Part shown: in pieces, positions 56,303 through 59,320 of the stretch
Position numbering within the stretch: the stretch's first letter is position 1
Layout: each line of letters begins with the position of its first letter
DNA from: Hyphomonadaceae bacterium
Lineage (GTDB): Bacteria > Pseudomonadota > Alphaproteobacteria > Caulobacterales > Aquidulcibacteraceae
Direction of reading: 5' to 3'
DNA: 64,000 nucleotides
Assembly: GCA_016791365.1 (NCBI GenBank)
Contig: JAEUMT010000005.1
Location: forward strand, 28,394-92,393
Notes under the pieces: generated by a model
Seen by the model: only the letters and a program-made list of their open reading frames with translations
What the model was told of the DNA's origin: nothing
The model's database searches: none
Position numbers and translations under genes: made by a program

Positions 56303-56348
56303 CAAACAAAAGGCCCGCGCTCCTCACGGAACGCGGGCCTTTCTTTAC
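56303..56348. terminator. Bidirectional terminator between RmlC-like and Ro genes
   Basis: AGGCCCGCG/CGCGGGCCT stem (56311-56319 with 56332-56340) with T-rich runs on both sides (TTTCTTT on the plus strand, TTTTGTTT on the minus). It serves both convergent genes. Confidence 0.85.
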
Positions 56349-57667
56349 TCCGCAGCTTCACTGGCGATGATCCAATCTAGGATCTTCTCCGAGAAGCCGT
56401 CGACGCGGCGCCATGGCCCATGGCCGACGCCGTGTTGGTACGACGCGACGTTGACCATGTAGCCAACGCCCTTCGGCGCATCGACCGCATCGTGCGATTG
56501 CTCGTCCGTGAAGACGATCAGGCGCGCGTCCTTGCGATCGACCTCGGCGACAGCCTTGCCGAGCCACGTGCCGCCGTGCGGCTGCGACGTGACGATGGCG
56601 TCGCGCAAAGCGAAGCCACGGCGCGGCGCGATCTTCTTCACCTTGTCGGAGAAGGTGTAGATCTCGATGTCCTCGCCGATCTCGCGCGCCAGAATGGCGA
56701 GGCCCACCGCCGCTTCGAGACGGCGCATCTCCGAACGCCCCGAAAGTGGGGAGTCCATCGAGCCCGAAACGTCGACAAGCAGGATCGTCTTGCCCGCGAG
56801 CTTTGCGTGGCCCTCGATTGAACGGAACATAGCATGTTCGAGTTCGGGTTCGAGGTCCGGCGCGTGCTGCGCGGCCGCGATGAAGCGGTAGGGCAGGACG
56901 CGGTCGGTGCGCATCTCGTCGAGCGCCTTGCCGATCGCCTTCTTCGAAACGCCGGCGACCTGCATGTTGCGCAGGTTGCGCAGCAGTGCGAGGGCGCCGA
57001 GCTTCTTGTCGGCGATCAGACGTTCGAACGTCTCCTTCTTGTCAGCGCCGCCGGACAGCGCGACTTCCCACGTATCGGGGGAGGCGAGCTTGCCGTCGAT
57101 CAGCTGCTTCCAGATCTTCTCCTGCGCCTCGTCCTTCGGCTTGGCGTGGGTGATGAACAGCACGTCGCGCAGGCGCACGGCGCCGTCGCGGTCGTACTTG
57201 GCGAGCTGGTAGGCGTCGAACTTCGCGAACGCGCGCGCCAGGCCCTTCTTGACCTGCGCCGAGACCGCAGCCTTCTTGCGTTGCTGCATCGGTCCAAGCG
57301 CGTCGACCCAGTAGATGGCGAGGAATTCGGTCAGTTCGTCCGGACGCTGGATGACGCGCTCGAGCGTGTCGGCCACGAGCCCGCGGTGGGTCTCATGACG
57401 CGCCATCTCACGCACGATCAGAAGCGGCGCATGACGCAGCTTCATATCTTCGCGCGCTTCGATGGCGAGCGCGGCGACGCGTTCGGCCTTCACCTTCGGC
57501 ACAAGCGCGGCCATGCGCTCGGCGATGGCGACGCCGTCCTCGTAGAACTGGCTTTCCCACAGCATCGAGTTCATCAACGCACGGCGCAATTGCTGCTCCG
57601 GCGTGAACGCGCGGCCCTTCGCGCCTTCATGCGTGCGCGCGGCCTGGGACTTGTTCAACTTCACCAT
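56345..57667 (-). CDS. rsr: Ro60/Rsr family RNA-binding protein (TROVE + vWA)
   Basis: 440-residue bacterial Ro orthologue. The TROVE ring of helical repeats spans about residues 1-285 with typical segments AKYDRDGAVRLRDVLFITHA and LGALALLRNLRNM. The vWA domain (293-440) has an intact MIDAS start DVSGSMDS (299-306). Known for the family: Ro binds Y RNAs on its outer surface and the 3' ends of misfolded RNAs in its central hole, and in Deinococcus it couples to PNPase. Here seven Y-RNA-like units lie directly upstream on the same strand. The start codon lies in a near copy of their conserved box (GATGGTGAAGT). No rtcB/rtcA genes are adjacent. Confidence 0.93.
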   Translation of the reverse strand: MVKLNKSQAARTHEGAKGRAFTPEQQLRRALMNSMLWESQFYEDGVAIAERMAALVPKVKAERVAALAIEAREDMKLRHAPLLIVREMARHETHRGLVADTLERVIQRPDELTEFLAIYWVDALGPMQQRKKAAVSAQVKKGLARAFAKFDAYQLAKYDRDGAVRLRDVLFITHAKPKDEAQEKIWKQLIDGKLASPDTWEVALSGGADKKETFERLIADKKLGALALLRNLRNMQVAGVSKKAIGKALDEMRTDRVLPYRFIAAAQHAPDLEPELEHAMFRSIEGHAKLAGKTILLVDVSGSMDSPLSGRSEMRRLEAAVGLAILAREIGEDIEIYTFSDKVKKIAPRRGFALRDAIVTSQPHGGTWLGKAVAEVDRKDARLIVFTDEQSHDAVDAPKGVGYMVNVASYQHGVGHGPWRRVDGFSEKILDWIIASEAAE

Positions 57668-57701
57668 CTCACTTCACCTACACTTCCTACTCCATCTGTT
57701 T

Positions 57702-57856
57702 GCCTCCTCCTCGATGGAGGAGGCGCCGCGAAGCGGCGGAGGAGGTGCGCGTTCGATGATGAAGGATGAGCCTTTTTAGGCTCAATCTTCAACACCATTG
57801 GCCTCACCTCCTCAGTCAGCGCTTCGCGCTGACAGCTCCTCCATCGAGGAGGAGCA
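57702..57856. repeat. Inverted pair of palindromic repeats upstream of the Ro gene
   Basis: Two related palindromic elements face each other: CCTCCTCCTCGATGGAGGAG at 57704-57723 with GCCGCGAAGCGGC inside, and at 57805-57856 one containing GTCAGCGCTTCGCGCTGAC and ending CTCCTCCATCGAGGAGGAG. They occupy most of the 195 bp between the last RNA unit and the Ro start, so they lie in the leader if Ro is cotranscribed with the array. Confidence 0.75.
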
Positions 57857-57861
57857 GAATC

Positions 57862-58002
57862 CGTCAGCCAGGGGAACGTACGAGACCGTAACGTGCTCTA
57901 CCAACTGAGCTACAGGTCCACAGTGTTGGACCTGGCGGGACTCGAACCCGCGACCACGCGATTAACAGTCGAAGTAACGGACCTCTTCACCACCTGCTGA
58001 CG
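57862..58002 (-). ncRNA. Y-RNA-like unit 7 with permuted tRNA-like domain
   Basis: Minus-strand RNA of about 140 nt closed by a helix CGTCAGC/GCTGACG. GGTGGTGAAGA (57984-57994) faces GTTCCCC (57871-57877). The inner helix CCGT/ACGG lies eight bases on, next to ACTTC. Then come a T arm (GCGGG TTCGAGT CCCGC), acceptor 3' strand CAGGTCCA, a 6-nt loop, acceptor 5' strand TGGACCTG and a D arm (AGCTCAGTTGGTAGAGC). The tRNA order is thus reversed: 3' half first, 5' half second, with a closed acceptor end and no CCA. This is the copy nearest the Ro gene and has the most canonical tRNA features. Confidence 0.85.
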
Positions 58003-58008
58003 CACGAC

Positions 58009-58028
58009 TTGGCGGTCACCACCGCCAA
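58009..58028 (-). other. Perfect hairpin between RNA units 6 and 7
   Basis: TTGGCGGT GGTG ACCGCCAA: 8-bp stem, 4-nt loop, in the largest spacer of the array (58003-58045). It may be a processing site or a relic of another unit, as its loop sequence GGTGAC resembles part of the conserved box. No T run follows. Confidence 0.5.
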
Positions 58029-58045
58029 ATTTCATAGATCCAAAT

Positions 58046-58137
58046 GCCGGCCGGGGAACGCTGCGATCTCCGCGTGTTCGACCTGGAAGGTCGAGCTTCA
58101 CCCAAAGAAGTAGCGGACATCTTCACCACCGGCCGAC
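58046..58137 (-). ncRNA. Y-RNA-like unit 6, short, without tRNA domain
   Basis: About 92 nt. Terminal helix GTCGGCC/GGCCGGC, boxes GGTGGTGAAGA (58120-58130) and GTTCCCC (58053-58059), inner helix CCGC/GCGG. The interior has only two simple hairpins (CTTC/GAAG and CGACC/GGTCG). It lacks T and D arms, so it corresponds to the short Y RNA form. The TCG preceding GTTCCCC is four bases away rather than three as in the other units. Confidence 0.8.
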
Positions 58138-58284
58138 GTTGGATGGCGGGGAACGAGCGAATACGAGAACCCCCTCGCGGGGAGACTGAGCTACGGGTTT
58201 CCCCGGCGCGATTTGAACGCGCGACCTCCGCGCGATGCGCGGTGCTCTACCGATGCACTCATACTCTTCACCACCGCCAAACGT
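58138..58284 (-). ncRNA. Y-RNA-like unit 5 with tRNA-like domain capped by a GAAA loop
   Basis: About 147 nt. Outer helix GGC/GCC extended by CGTT/AACG around an internal loop. Boxes at 58265-58275 and 58148-58154, inner helix TGAG/CTCG. T arm GCGCG TTCAAAT CGCGC, then acceptor CGGG GAAA CCCG, in which a GNRA tetraloop closes the acceptor stem, then TAGCTCAG of the D arm, which is altered (CTCCCCGCGAGGGGG follows). Because the acceptor end is a hairpin loop, aminoacylation is impossible. Confidence 0.8.
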
Positions 58285-58287
58285 GAT

Positions 58288-58428
58288 GCCGGGCTGGGGA
58301 ACGGACGACCTCTGATTGCCGCCGAAGCAGCATCTGCTCTCCCAACTGAGCTACGGGCCCCCAACGTGGACCCGGCGGGATTCGAACCCGCGACCCGATG
58401 AATCAGACATCTTCACCACCAACTCGGC
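58288..58428 (-). ncRNA. Y-RNA-like unit 4 with permuted tRNA-like domain
   Basis: About 141 nt. Terminal helix GCCGAGTT/AGCCCGGC (7 of 8 pairs). Boxes at 58410-58420 and 58296-58302, inner helix CTGA/TCAG. T arm GCGGG TTCGAAT CCCGC, acceptor CGGGTCC/GGGCCCG closed by ACGTTG, D arm AGCTCAGTTGGGAGAGC, then hairpin GCTGC TTCG GCGGC. All tRNA core contacts (TTCGAAT loop, D-loop GG) look present. Confidence 0.85.
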
Positions 58429-58436
58429 AAGTCGGA

Positions 58437-58590
58437 CCGATCCGGGGAACAGGCGAAACCTGCAACGCTGCCGAAGCAGCCACGCGCTCTACTGCTGAGC
58501 TACAGGTCCACAAGAAGACCTGGCGGGACTTGCACCCGCGCGACCTCGTCGGTGTGAACGAAGAAACAGATCTCTTCACCACCGGATCGG
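58437..58590 (-). ncRNA. Y-RNA-like unit 3 with permuted tRNA-like domain
   Basis: About 154 nt. Terminal helix CCGATCC/GGATCGG (7 perfect pairs). Boxes at 58573-58583 and 58444-58450, inner helix CTG/CAG. T arm GCGGG TGCAAGT CCCGC (loop differs from the usual TTCGAAT), acceptor CAGGTC/GACCTG closed by TTCTTGTG, D arm AGCTCAGCAGTAGAGC, hairpin GGCTGC TTCG GCAGC. Confidence 0.83.
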
Positions 58591-58597
58591 AATTGGC

Positions 58598-58784
58598 TTT
58601 GTCGGGGAACGGTCGAGAGCGGGCCAAGCCATCATCATCGCAAAGCTTGAGACAAGGTCTCGCGCTCGGAGCCCGCGTCACGACGATCTTTGCGGGATCG
58701 CCTCCACGGTACGATGCATGCGCCGGCTGGATTCGAACCAGCTTTATCCAGAGCGAAGTATCCGCGCTCTTCACCACCGACAAA
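58598..58784 (-). ncRNA. Y-RNA-like unit 2, long, with T arm only
   Basis: About 187 nt, the longest unit. Terminal helix TTTGTC/GACAAA (6 perfect pairs). Boxes at 58768-58778 and 58604-58610, inner helix GCGG/CCGC. A T arm GCTGG TTCGAAT CCAGC is clear, but no D arm was recognised; the remaining about 100 nt can fold into other hairpins. It may be a degenerated or alternative tRNA mimic. Confidence 0.75.
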
Positions 58785-58788
58785 TTGT

Positions 58789-58850
58789 ATTCAGGGGAAC
58801 GGCCGACGCGGCCTTTTTGCAGAAGAACTCCGCATCTTCACCACCTGAAT
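58789..58850 (-). ncRNA. Y-RNA-like unit 1, minimal
   Basis: About 62 nt, the shortest unit and first in the direction of transcription. Terminal helix ATTCA/TGAAT, boxes at 58835-58845 and 58794-58800, inner helix GCGG/CCGC, with small hairpins (GGCC GCGTC GGCC) and no tRNA-like arms. It defines the minimal core shared by all seven. Confidence 0.78.
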
Positions 58851-58900
58851 TTCAAAAACTCTCCTTCGTTTCCACATGACAAAGGCTTCGGAGAGGCTGG

Positions 58901-58938
58901 AAACAAAAACCCCTCCGGAGCGTGGCTCTGGAGGGGTT
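58901..58938 (-). terminator. Rho-independent terminator upstream of the RNA array
   Basis: Minus-strand RNA: AACCCCTCC/GGAGGGGTT stem (13-nt loop) followed by TTTTTGTTT. It lies about 50 bp before unit 1, so it either ends a separate upstream transcript or acts as an attenuator for the array. Confidence 0.75.
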
Positions 58939-59150
58939 CGAAAAATGCGAACACTCGAAATGGGATCAGCCCATTTCGCCTCCATGAGAAAGCGCGCGTG
59001 CATCGACGCCGCCCTGAGCATTCAGCTCAAGCGCGCACGGCGATCCGGCTATGAAATTCAAAACGCTTTTCATTCGACTTTCTCATTCCCGCGCACGATC
59101 ACCGCACGCGAAGGGGCGGCTGTATGATCTTCGTTCGTGGCGGCGTCAAG
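58939..59150 (-). other. Candidate structured leader or small RNA
   Basis: No supported protein gene. Read on the minus strand it has a stem region GTGCGCGC...GCGCGC enclosing TGAGC TGAAT GCTCA (about 58990-59040), then a perfect 9-bp hairpin CGAAATGGG CTGAT CCCATTTCG (58956-58978), then the terminator at 58901-58938. A row of hairpins ending in a terminator looks like a small RNA or a regulatory leader. Nothing places it in a known family. Confidence 0.45.
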
Positions 59151-59196
59151 GCGAAAAAACGCGACGATGCGCATTTTTGAGTCGGGTGATGTAGCG

Positions 59197-59235
59197 AAAA
59201 CAAGAAGGCCGCAGCGCTGTTACACGCTGCGGCCT
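59197..59235 (-). terminator. Rho-independent terminator of the DUF4910 gene
   Basis: Minus-strand RNA: AGGCCGCAGCG/CGCTGCGGCCT (11 bp, 8-nt loop) followed by TCTTGTTTT. It is about 85 bp past the stop codon of the gene at 59321-60649 and separates it from the RNA array. Confidence 0.85.
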
Positions 59236-59257
59236 GATTCTGATCGACGCACCAACA

Positions 59258-59276
59258 GCGTCAGCCTGTCGAAGGC
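59258..59276. repeat. Dispersed GCGTCAGCCTGTCGAAGG-type repeat
   Basis: One copy of the short repeat also found at 9324, 56209 and 56263. With the pair at 56209-56287 it brackets the Ro/RNA module. Confidence 0.6.
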
Positions 59277-59320
59277 GGGTGATTGCGCGCGAACGCCGGT
59301 GCGTGGCGTCGCGCTTCGCG

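What the first reader, a model, noticed from the sequence alone, without database searches (positions are those of the whole stretch)
57862..58850. Tandem array of seven Y-RNA-like structured RNAs directly upstream of a Ro60/Rsr gene
Seen directly: on the minus strand seven units each contain an invariant GGTGGTGAAGA and an invariant GTTCCCC. Outside these boxes each unit has a terminal helix of its own sequence that still pairs (TTTGTC/GACAAA, CCGATCC/GGATCGG, GTCGGCC/GGCCGGC, CGTCAGC/GCTGACG and others). Inside, a second copy-specific helix (CCGT/ACGG, CCGC/GCGG, CTGA/TCAG, CTG/CAG) always begins 2-4 bases after the first box, and NCWTC always follows after exactly eight bases. TCG lies three bases before GTTCCCC in six of seven. 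Paired changes across seven copies are strong evidence for conserved RNA structure. Known: bacterial Ro proteins bind Y RNAs through a closed end helix with a bulge. Inference: this is a Y RNA family expanded to seven members next to its protein, which is far more than the one or few copies usually described.
Basis: partly seen in the sequence, partly recalled or inferred. Interest (0 to 1): 0.95.

Follow-up and report, generated by a model that had tools for sequence, protein, structure and literature searches.

The report
Y RNAs carrying whole tRNA look-alikes
Directly upstream of a bacterial Ro60-like gene lie seven different predicted Y RNAs, and two of them can be read as a complete tRNA cloverleaf in rearranged order, anticodon loop included, which would let the Ro protein hold a tRNA look-alike out to enzymes that handle tRNA.

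Summary
In detail: seven minus-strand units, each with GGTGGTGAAGA, GTTCCCC and its own helices, directly upstream of a TROVE/vWA gene (rsr). The Y RNA reading is supported: 10 of 11 family genomes with rsr carry 4-7 units, and 71 of 80 named rsr loci have units upstream on the rsr strand (2 of 80 on the other). Four units hold tRNA-like modules, joined to the Ro helix at three places: the anticodon-loop end (U4, the Rfam YrlA layout), inside the anticodon stem between nt 28 and 29 (U3, U7), and in the D loop (U5). U3 and U7 keep a whole anticodon arm. Over 33 distinct relatives its five stem pairs covary strongly; the 7-nt loops look like real anticodon loops (30 of 34 distinct loops have U33, none A34), spell 20 anticodons, and often differ between orthologs. 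U3 and U7 match the genome's own Val(CAC) and Asn(GUU) loops exactly. U1 and U6 lack a tRNA module. Expression, Rsr binding and function are untested, and the main Y RNA papers were not readable. I read the array as interchangeable Rsr-bound effectors; anticodon-nuclease decoys are the boldest reading.

The parts
56345..57667 (-). rsr: TROVE/vWA (Ro60-like) protein, 440 aa
   Evidence: PF05731 70.6 bits (cut-off 23), VWA_2 28.9 bits (cut-off 27); MIDAS-type DVSGS invariant in the 10 aligned sequences; PDB relatives 9l5y and 9kop, E 7e-29
58794..58845 (-). U1 (type I): minimal unit, no tRNA module
   Evidence: boxes; type found in 10 of 14 Hyphomonadaceae loci, the window's included, mean identity 0.74; not matched by model R1
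58604..58778 (-). U2 (type II): long unit with a T-arm-like hairpin (GCTGG-TTCGAAT-CCAGC) and a further conserved module of unknown kind
   Evidence: (11 of 14 loci); model R1 45.5 bits
58444..58583 (-). U3 (type III): complete cloverleaf, Ro helix between nt 28 and 29; two extra bases before the T stem
   Evidence: anticodon arm CGTCG-TTCACAC-CGACG when read in tRNA order, with a two-base shift of the frame; R1 97.0 bits
58552..58558 (-). U3 anticodon loop TTCACAC, identical to the genome's tRNA-Val(CAC) loop
58296..58420 (-). U4: YrlA of the Rfam layout: T, acceptor and D arms, anticodon stem GATG/CATC (27-30/40-43), no anticodon loop
   Evidence: read by me; Rfam YrlA 39.7 bits; R1 90.4 bits
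58148..58275 (-). U5 (type V): tRNA-like module with the Ro helix in the D loop; acceptor closed by a GAAA tetraloop
   Evidence: GAGCA | CCGCGCATCGCGCGG | AGGTC | T arm | CGGGGAAACCCG | TAGCTCAG; R1 56.2 bits
58053..58130 (-). U6 (type VI): short hairpin unit, no tRNA module
   Evidence: type found in 8 of 14 loci; fold
57871..57994 (-). U7 (type VII): complete cloverleaf, Ro helix between nt 28 and 29
   Evidence: A-CGCGA-CTGTTAA-TCGCG in tRNA order; R1 139 bits (U7 is in the model's training set)
57962..57968 (-). U7 anticodon loop CTGTTAA, identical to the genome's tRNA-Asn(GUU) loop
58860..59075 (-). conserved structured leader with an intrinsic-terminator-like hairpin just upstream of U1; possible attenuator, function unknown

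Best explanation
The region encodes seven predicted Y RNAs that share one likely Rsr-binding bulged helix but carry different inner modules, two of which keep all four arms of a tRNA cloverleaf with a genuine-looking anticodon loop. The Ro-type helix (GG-U-GG pairing with CCCC, plus the conserved internal loop) would dock each RNA on the Rsr ring made from the gene just downstream. In U3 and U7 that helix enters the tRNA body inside the anticodon stem, between nt 28 and 29, and the acceptor end is closed into a loop, so the module can look like a tRNA to D-arm, T-arm and anticodon-arm binders but is not expected to be charged. I infer that the array makes a set of interchangeable Rsr RNPs whose inner modules recruit tRNA-handling factors (PNPase by analogy with known bacterial Y RNAs; tRNA-modifying or tRNA-cutting enzymes) to Rsr, and that the different layouts present the tRNA body in different orientations. 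Shown: anatomy, synteny, covariation, loop statistics. Inferred: transcription as one precursor cut into units, Rsr binding, recruitment.
For: Synteny: rsr in 11 of 60 family genomes, 10 of these 11 with 4-7 units on the rsr strand; 71 of 80 named loci have box1-box2-helix units on the rsr strand, 2 of 80 on the other (my count of the listing). Cloverleaf: of 36 units (34 chosen by length alone, 2 added by hand) one was dropped for an aberrant D arm; in the other 35, pairs 27-43 and 28-42 form in 68 of 70 cells against a maximum of 55 in 20,000 shuffles and 11-39 at other offsets. On the 33 distinct ones the 5-bp anticodon stem is paired in 91.5% of cells, covariation score 0.871 against 0.244 +- 0.037 shuffled (0 of 500) and at most 0.313 when slid. 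Loop: in the 34 length-chosen units U33 in 32, purine 37 in 31, exact own-genome tRNA loop in 14, against 4 of 4384 other 7-mers of the same units. A second set of 30 units found by model R1: U33 27, R37 29, all five pairs 26, exact loops 8. 34 distinct loops from 62 units: 30 with U33, none with A34 (p 0.00018 on the 30), 20 anticodons for 16 amino acids, 19 of the 20 among the genome's own tRNA anticodons. G36 goes with G37 as in real tRNAs (p 0.0035, distinct loops). Tertiary positions not forced by the search pattern: R15 60 of 60, Y48 60 of 60, D-loop GG 59 of 60. Acceptor closed: 39 of 60 closing loops are 5 nt or shorter.
Against: No transcript, Rsr-binding or partner data exist here. 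No window unit reaches Rfam's YrlA cut-off (no YrlA hit at cut-off in 12 further loci). Model R1 is not specific genome-wide: 263 of 398 genomes match at E <= 0.001, and 19 of the 30 loci fetched are clusters of real tRNAs. R1 contains the anticodon stem, so the second set of 30 units is not fully independent, and related units are counted as separate in all these tests. In one search two of the five measures do not stand out from shuffles (pairs changed on both sides 5, reached by 86 of 500; further pair types 14, reached by 58 of 500). Four of 34 distinct loops lack U33, some units have 6- or 8-nt loops, and U3 has two extra bases before the T stem. U1 and U6 have no tRNA module, so tRNA mimicry cannot be the whole function. 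The extra arm may be only structural.
Confidence: 0.6

Rival explanations
1. Ordinary YrlA RNAs: the anticodon arm is kept only as a structural cap that steadies the tRNA-like fold, and its loop identity has no role.
For: A YrlA described as having D, T and acceptor arms is known in Salmonella (passages of PMC8394870), and U4 has that layout. Loop identity varies between orthologs while the stem stays. Type V units cap the same arm with other, non-anticodon loops.
Against: A mere cap would not need U33, R37, absence of A34 and the 36-37 linkage.
Confidence: 0.35
2. Anticodon-nuclease decoy or sensor bank: the varied loops bait anticodon-cutting enzymes, and Rsr/PNPase then removes or signals the cut product.
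For: 20 anticodons, different ones in orthologous units; in the closest Bradyrhizobium pair 5 of 7 loop bases differ while 5 of 150 others do. An RtcB-like ligase gene recurs in 11 of 81 neighbourhoods compared (one member, L025, identified as RtcB family though below NCBIfam's cut-offs). A decoy role for YrlA was proposed in PMC7790460 (passages).
Against: In that paper fragments of Salmonella YrlA were not detected, i.e. it was not cut. The loop is stable within a Bradyrhizobium sub-clade (CTGTGAA in 6 units of 6 loci). I did not search for anticodon nucleases beside the arrays; none is named among the Pfam hits of the four neighbouring proteins scanned.
Confidence: 0.22
3. Permuted, working tRNA genes that are cut open at the acceptor and used in translation.
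For: Complete cloverleaf with real anticodons.
Against: 39 of 60 closing loops are 5 nt or shorter, too short for a discriminator, CCA and leader; 6 of 8 type V acceptors end in GNRA-like loops (my reading). The genome already has tRNAs for 38 anticodons. The D and T arms do not follow the anticodon: the same-anticodon tRNA ranks first for 2 of the 33 units that have one to rank (tRNAs of the window genome only).
Confidence: 0.03
4. Leader of the rsr mRNA: the seven Rsr-binding structures mainly titrate Rsr and control rsr expression in cis.
For: Same strand, directly upstream, a terminator-like structured leader ahead of U1.
Against: Inner modules are conserved separately as tRNA mimics, which titration would not require. 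In a second Ro-box class the units lie downstream of the Ro60 gene in 8 of 8 loci. Known bacterial Y RNAs are described as separate RNAs (PMC8394870 passages).
Confidence: 0.1

Closest known systems
YrlA (Y RNA-like A; Rfam RF02553), bacterial Y RNAs of Salmonella and others
   Same: Encoded beside rsr; terminal Ro-type helix; permuted D, T and acceptor arms with a closed acceptor. The 3D structure 6CU1 is described as a circularly permuted match to tRNA in PMC11472068 (passages).
   Different: The Rfam consensus shown by cmscan has the Ro helix at the end of a 4-bp anticodon stem and no anticodon loop. U3/U7 keep the anticodon loop with the Ro helix between nt 28 and 29, U5 has it in the D loop, and U1/U6 have no tRNA part.
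Deinococcus radiodurans Rsr-Y RNA-PNPase complex (RYPER)
   Same: Y RNA as tether and gate on a Ro ring; the proposed working principle (passages of PMC8394870 and PMC4726728).
   Different: PNPase tethering not tested here; seven RNAs of several types instead of the one discussed in those passages.
rsr-yrlBA-rtcBA RNA repair operon (Salmonella; PMC7790460 passages)
   Same: rsr with Y RNAs; an RtcB-like gene recurs in 11 of the 81 neighbourhoods compared and directly follows rsr in L025.
   Different: No RtcB-like ORF in the window stretch compared.
tRNA genes
   Same: All cloverleaf helices and anticodon loops.
   Different: Order permuted, acceptor closed, Ro helix inserted; ARAGORN finds no tRNA in the window.

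Membership tests
bacterial Y RNA / YrlA | encoded next to a Ro60/Rsr gene | tested here: met
bacterial Y RNA / YrlA | terminal helix with conserved bulged Ro-type boxes | tested here: met
   7 of 7 units; sequence and covariation only
bacterial Y RNA / YrlA | tRNA-like domain with D, T and acceptor arms | tested here: met
   U3, U4, U7; U5 in another layout; not met in U1 and U6; U2 has a T-arm-like hairpin only
bacterial Y RNA / YrlA | score above Rfam RF02553 cut-off (69 bits) | tested here: not met
   best 48.1 bits; no YrlA hit at cut-off in 12 other loci
bacterial Y RNA / YrlA | made as a discrete RNA and bound by Rsr | not testable with these tools
   needs RNA-seq and pull-down
Ro60/Rsr protein | TROVE domain | tested here: met
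   70.6 bits, cut-off 23
Ro60/Rsr protein | C-terminal vWA domain with MIDAS motif | tested here: met
   VWA_2 28.9 bits, cut-off 27; vWA_Ro60 20.0 bits, below its cut-off 27.7; DVSGS
tRNA gene | canonical arm order recognised by a tRNA finder | tested here: not met
   0 tRNAs; the RF00005 hit 58367-58509 joins halves of two neighbouring units
tRNA gene | free acceptor end for CCA | tested here: not met
   closed acceptor; 39 of 60 closing loops 5 nt or shorter
RYPER | Y RNA tethers PNPase to Rsr | not testable with these tools
   no interaction data

The most novel reading that the evidence does not exclude
The Rsr-Y RNA array is an anticodon bank: Ro ribonucleoproteins display swappable, real anticodon arms on uncharged tRNA mimics as decoys or sensors for anticodon nucleases, with the anticodon replaced between species while the rest of the RNA is kept, and with three different attachment points that present the tRNA body in different orientations on one Ro ring.
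Probability: 0.2. Interest if true: 0.93.

Novelty: new variant of a known kind. Interest (0 to 1): 0.8.

Why it matters
Bacterial Y RNAs are described in the passages I could read as mimicking the D, T and acceptor arms of tRNA. A complete cloverleaf with 20 different anticodons across species, held on a Ro ring, would make the open question of what the tRNA mimicry is for directly testable: change three bases of the loop and ask which partner, modification or cut is lost. It also shows that one conserved Ro-type helix has been joined to tRNA bodies at three different points, and to non-tRNA modules, within one array.

Tried and rejected
Tandem copies of a single RNA: rejected, the units fall into distinct types. 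Canonical tRNA across units (Rfam tRNA hit 58367-58509): rejected as an artefact of the permuted order in tandem. First model of the anticodon arm with 27-28 supplied from the 5' side: replaced, since 28-42 paired in only 16 of 35 units (27-43 in 28), whereas the bases after the D arm pair in 34 of 35 at each position. Wholesale capture of the same-anticodon host tRNA: not supported (rank 1 for 2 of 33). Specific genome-wide search by covariance model: failed on specificity because clusters of real tRNAs match. Defence-system model for Rsr: none in PADLOC; NCBIfam none for Rsr. Sigma-70 consensus promoter in 57600-59320: none found. Strict automatic search for D-loop units found 8 distinct ones, and their anticodon-stem pairing did not exceed shuffles (30 of 40 cells; shuffled mean 24, maximum 34), partly because two need a one-base shift; further likely cases were seen by eye (L042, L059, L145, L148). 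Key papers on bacterial Y RNAs (Chen 2013, Chen 2014, Wang 2018, Sim and Wolin 2018) are not held, so novelty rests on passages of five papers and on the listings of searches; I recall the gist of Chen 2014 but did not read it.

Full report
WHAT IS THERE. The minus strand from 58850 to 57862 holds seven units, each bounded by its own terminal helix and containing GGTGGTGAAGA near its 5' end and GTTCCCC near its 3' end. The first box is far above chance; the second is not on its own, but the two alternate without exception. The next gene downstream on the same strand, 57667-56345, is a TROVE plus vWA protein, 86-95% identical to its three nearest aligned relatives and 52% to the most distant of nine, with two solved TROVE relatives in the PDB. 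The genome has 16 exact matches to the first box: seven here and nine scattered over seven other contigs.

RELATIVES. In 60 genomes of the family rsr occurs in 11; in 10 of these 11 an array of 4-7 units precedes it on its strand, and the exception (L010) has a distant Rsr. A scan of named genomes gave 80 rsr loci, mainly from Hyphomonadaceae, Bradyrhizobium and other Alphaproteobacteria, and Acidobacteria (best 80 of 215 relatives kept). Units with both boxes and an outer helix of at least 4 bp occur on the rsr strand, upstream, in 71 of 80 and on the other strand in 2 of 80 (my count of the listing). In 14 Hyphomonadaceae loci the units fall into types in a conserved order: mini (I), long (II), YrlA-like (III), then non-tRNA (IV) or D-loop type (V), short hairpin (VI), YrlA-like (VII); no locus is obliged to have all. 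A different alphaproteobacterial family (G063, loci L140/L145) has eight model matches upstream of its TROVE gene.

THE tRNA MODULES. Rfam gives YrlA matches below its cut-off on the window units (48.1, 39.7, 30.3, 17.2, 16.9 bits; cut-off 69). The solved YrlA structure is described as circularly permuted relative to tRNA (PMC11472068, passages), with similarity to the D, T and acceptor arms (PMC8394870, passages). In the Rfam consensus printed a 4-bp helix, which corresponds to the outer anticodon stem, leads into the Ro helix and there is no anticodon loop. U4 has this layout (GATG/CATC).

U3 and U7, and their relatives, do not. Counting back from the T loop with canonical tRNA spacing (T stem 5, variable loop 5, then nt 43-39) one meets a 7-nt loop. 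In 34 units chosen by length alone it has U33 in 32, a purine at 37 in 31 and is identical to an anticodon loop of the window genome's own tRNAs in 14; elsewhere in the same units 4 of 4384 7-mers are. The inner stem pairs 29-31 with 39-41. The outer pairs 27-43 and 28-42 are made by the two bases that follow nt 26 after the D arm, as in a real tRNA: 68 of 70 cells, against a maximum of 55 in 20,000 shuffles and 11-39 at other offsets. On 33 distinct units the five pairs are formed in 91.5% of cells with changes on both sides at every pair; covariation 0.871 against 0.244 +- 0.037 (0 of 500 shuffles), slid versions at most 0.313; two coarser measures of the same call are reached by 86 and 58 of 500 shuffles. 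So the Ro helix enters between nt 28 and 29 and the cloverleaf is otherwise complete, with the acceptor closed by a loop (5 nt or shorter in 39 of 60). U3 itself needs a two-base shift because of two extra bases before its T stem.

THE ANTICODON LOOPS. Thirty further units found with model R1 (built from 21 units; the model holds the anticodon stem, so these are not fully independent) repeat the pattern: U33 27, R37 29, all five pairs 26, exact own-genome loop 8, of 30. Over 62 units there are 34 distinct loops; 30 have U33 and none has A34 (p 0.00018 on the 30); they spell 20 anticodons of 16 amino acids, 19 of which the window genome's own tRNAs carry. G at 36 goes with G at 37 as in real tRNAs (p 0.0035). 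Type III: 9 of 14 units fit perfectly and show 8 anticodons; over these 9, entropy is zero at 29-31, 33 and 39-41 and 1.35-1.75 bits at 34-36. Among Bradyrhizobium units the closest pair differs at 5 of 7 loop bases and 5 of 150 others; of 45 pairs under 12% divergence the loop differs in 23, and six units keep one loop, so turnover is episodic. The D and T arms do not follow the anticodon (same-anticodon tRNA first for 2 of 33), so whole-tRNA capture is not the usual route.

THIRD LAYOUT. In U5 the order is GAGCA, anticodon arm, variable loop, T arm, a short acceptor capped by GAAA, then TAGCTCAG: the Ro helix sits in the D loop. A strict search found 8 distinct such units, 6 of them with a GNRA-like acceptor cap by my reading; more were seen by eye in Bradyrhizobium, Acidobacteria and G063. 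The set is too small for a covariation claim: arm pairing did not exceed shuffles.

R1 over 398 genomes of the phylum matched 263 at E <= 0.001, so it is not specific. Of the 30 loci fetched, 19 hold 2-7 real tRNAs. The other 11 all lie beside a Ro60-type gene: two with close Rsr (L147 own, L148), L156 by PF05731, and eight whose weak tblastn match (22-28% identity) is a protein with the Ro60 vWA domain above cut-off in 8 of 8 and TROVE above cut-off in 4 of 8, several reading frames being cut by the locus ends. Most of these eight have a second Ro-box class (CGAATGC...GGAACTACA); there the RNAs lie downstream of the Ro60 gene, and anticodon arms and D-loop units can be seen by eye. In the window R1 matches 6 of 7 units, not U1.

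HOW IT PROBABLY WORKS. Inference: the units are cut from a common precursor, bound by Rsr through the shared helix, and differ in what they recruit. By analogy with RYPER one partner is PNPase; the tRNA bodies would add tRNA-handling enzymes. An RtcB-like ligase gene recurs in 11 of 81 neighbourhoods compared (L025's copy, next to rsr, was identified, below NCBIfam's cut-offs), though not in the window, which fits a link to tRNA damage. The decoy idea was raised for YrlA in PMC7790460 (passages), where fragments of Salmonella YrlA were not detected; here a true anticodon loop is present, so the idea becomes testable.

LIMITS. No expression or binding data; key papers were not readable; own-genome tRNAs (40 distinct, tRNA-Ile GAU absent from the set) were the only loop reference; related sequences inflate shuffle tests, which is why slid and offset controls are given. 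A terminator-like leader ahead of U1 is conserved in the 12 loci I aligned and found in 12 of 60 family genomes, 10 of which carry rsr; the other two are G040, where no box or rsr was found in the stretch read, and a 34-base match in G030.

Noticed in passing
window 58860-59075 (minus): Structured leader conserved in the 12 relatives' loci aligned: a possible three-way junction whose last strand also forms an intrinsic-terminator-like hairpin, then a GTTTCC/GGAAAC hairpin before U1. It could be an attenuator of the array; in G040 it occurs without the array.
   Followed up: partly
window around 57667 (minus); L002, L003, L005, L011 likewise: The rsr start region GATGGTGAAG(A/T/C) resembles the first box of the Y RNA units (1-2 mismatches); it also simply encodes Met-Val-Lys. 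Possible Rsr autoregulation.
   Followed up: no
window 57705-57854: Large inverted repeats (CCTCCTC.../GAGGAGG...) between U7 and rsr, including a hairpin that begins GGTGTTGAAGATTGAGCC, one mismatch from the first box.
   Followed up: no
60 family genomes: rsr is patchy (11 of 60 genomes, 3 of 14 genera), which suggests repeated loss or transfer as a cassette.
   Followed up: no
L024:427-583 and L028:4599-4756: Two Bradyrhizobium Y RNAs differ at 5 of 7 anticodon-loop bases (CTGTGAA, TTCCCAC) but only 5 of 150 other bases, as if the loop were replaced as a block.
   Followed up: partly
window 58778-58604 (U2) and its type in 11 loci: Type II unit holds a conserved stretch (CGTACCGTGGAGGCG...GACGCGGG) of unknown kind beside a T-arm-like hairpin.
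   Followed up: no
L149, L150, L151, L152, L153, L157, L162, L168: A second Ro-box class of Y RNAs lies downstream of its Ro60-type gene and by eye also carries anticodon arms (e.g. AGC-CTGTCAC-GCT in L168).
   Followed up: partly
tRNA clusters in many genomes: Neighbouring real tRNAs (T arm of one, D arm of the next) score as permuted tRNAs; a trap for any search for permuted tRNA mimics.
   Followed up: yes
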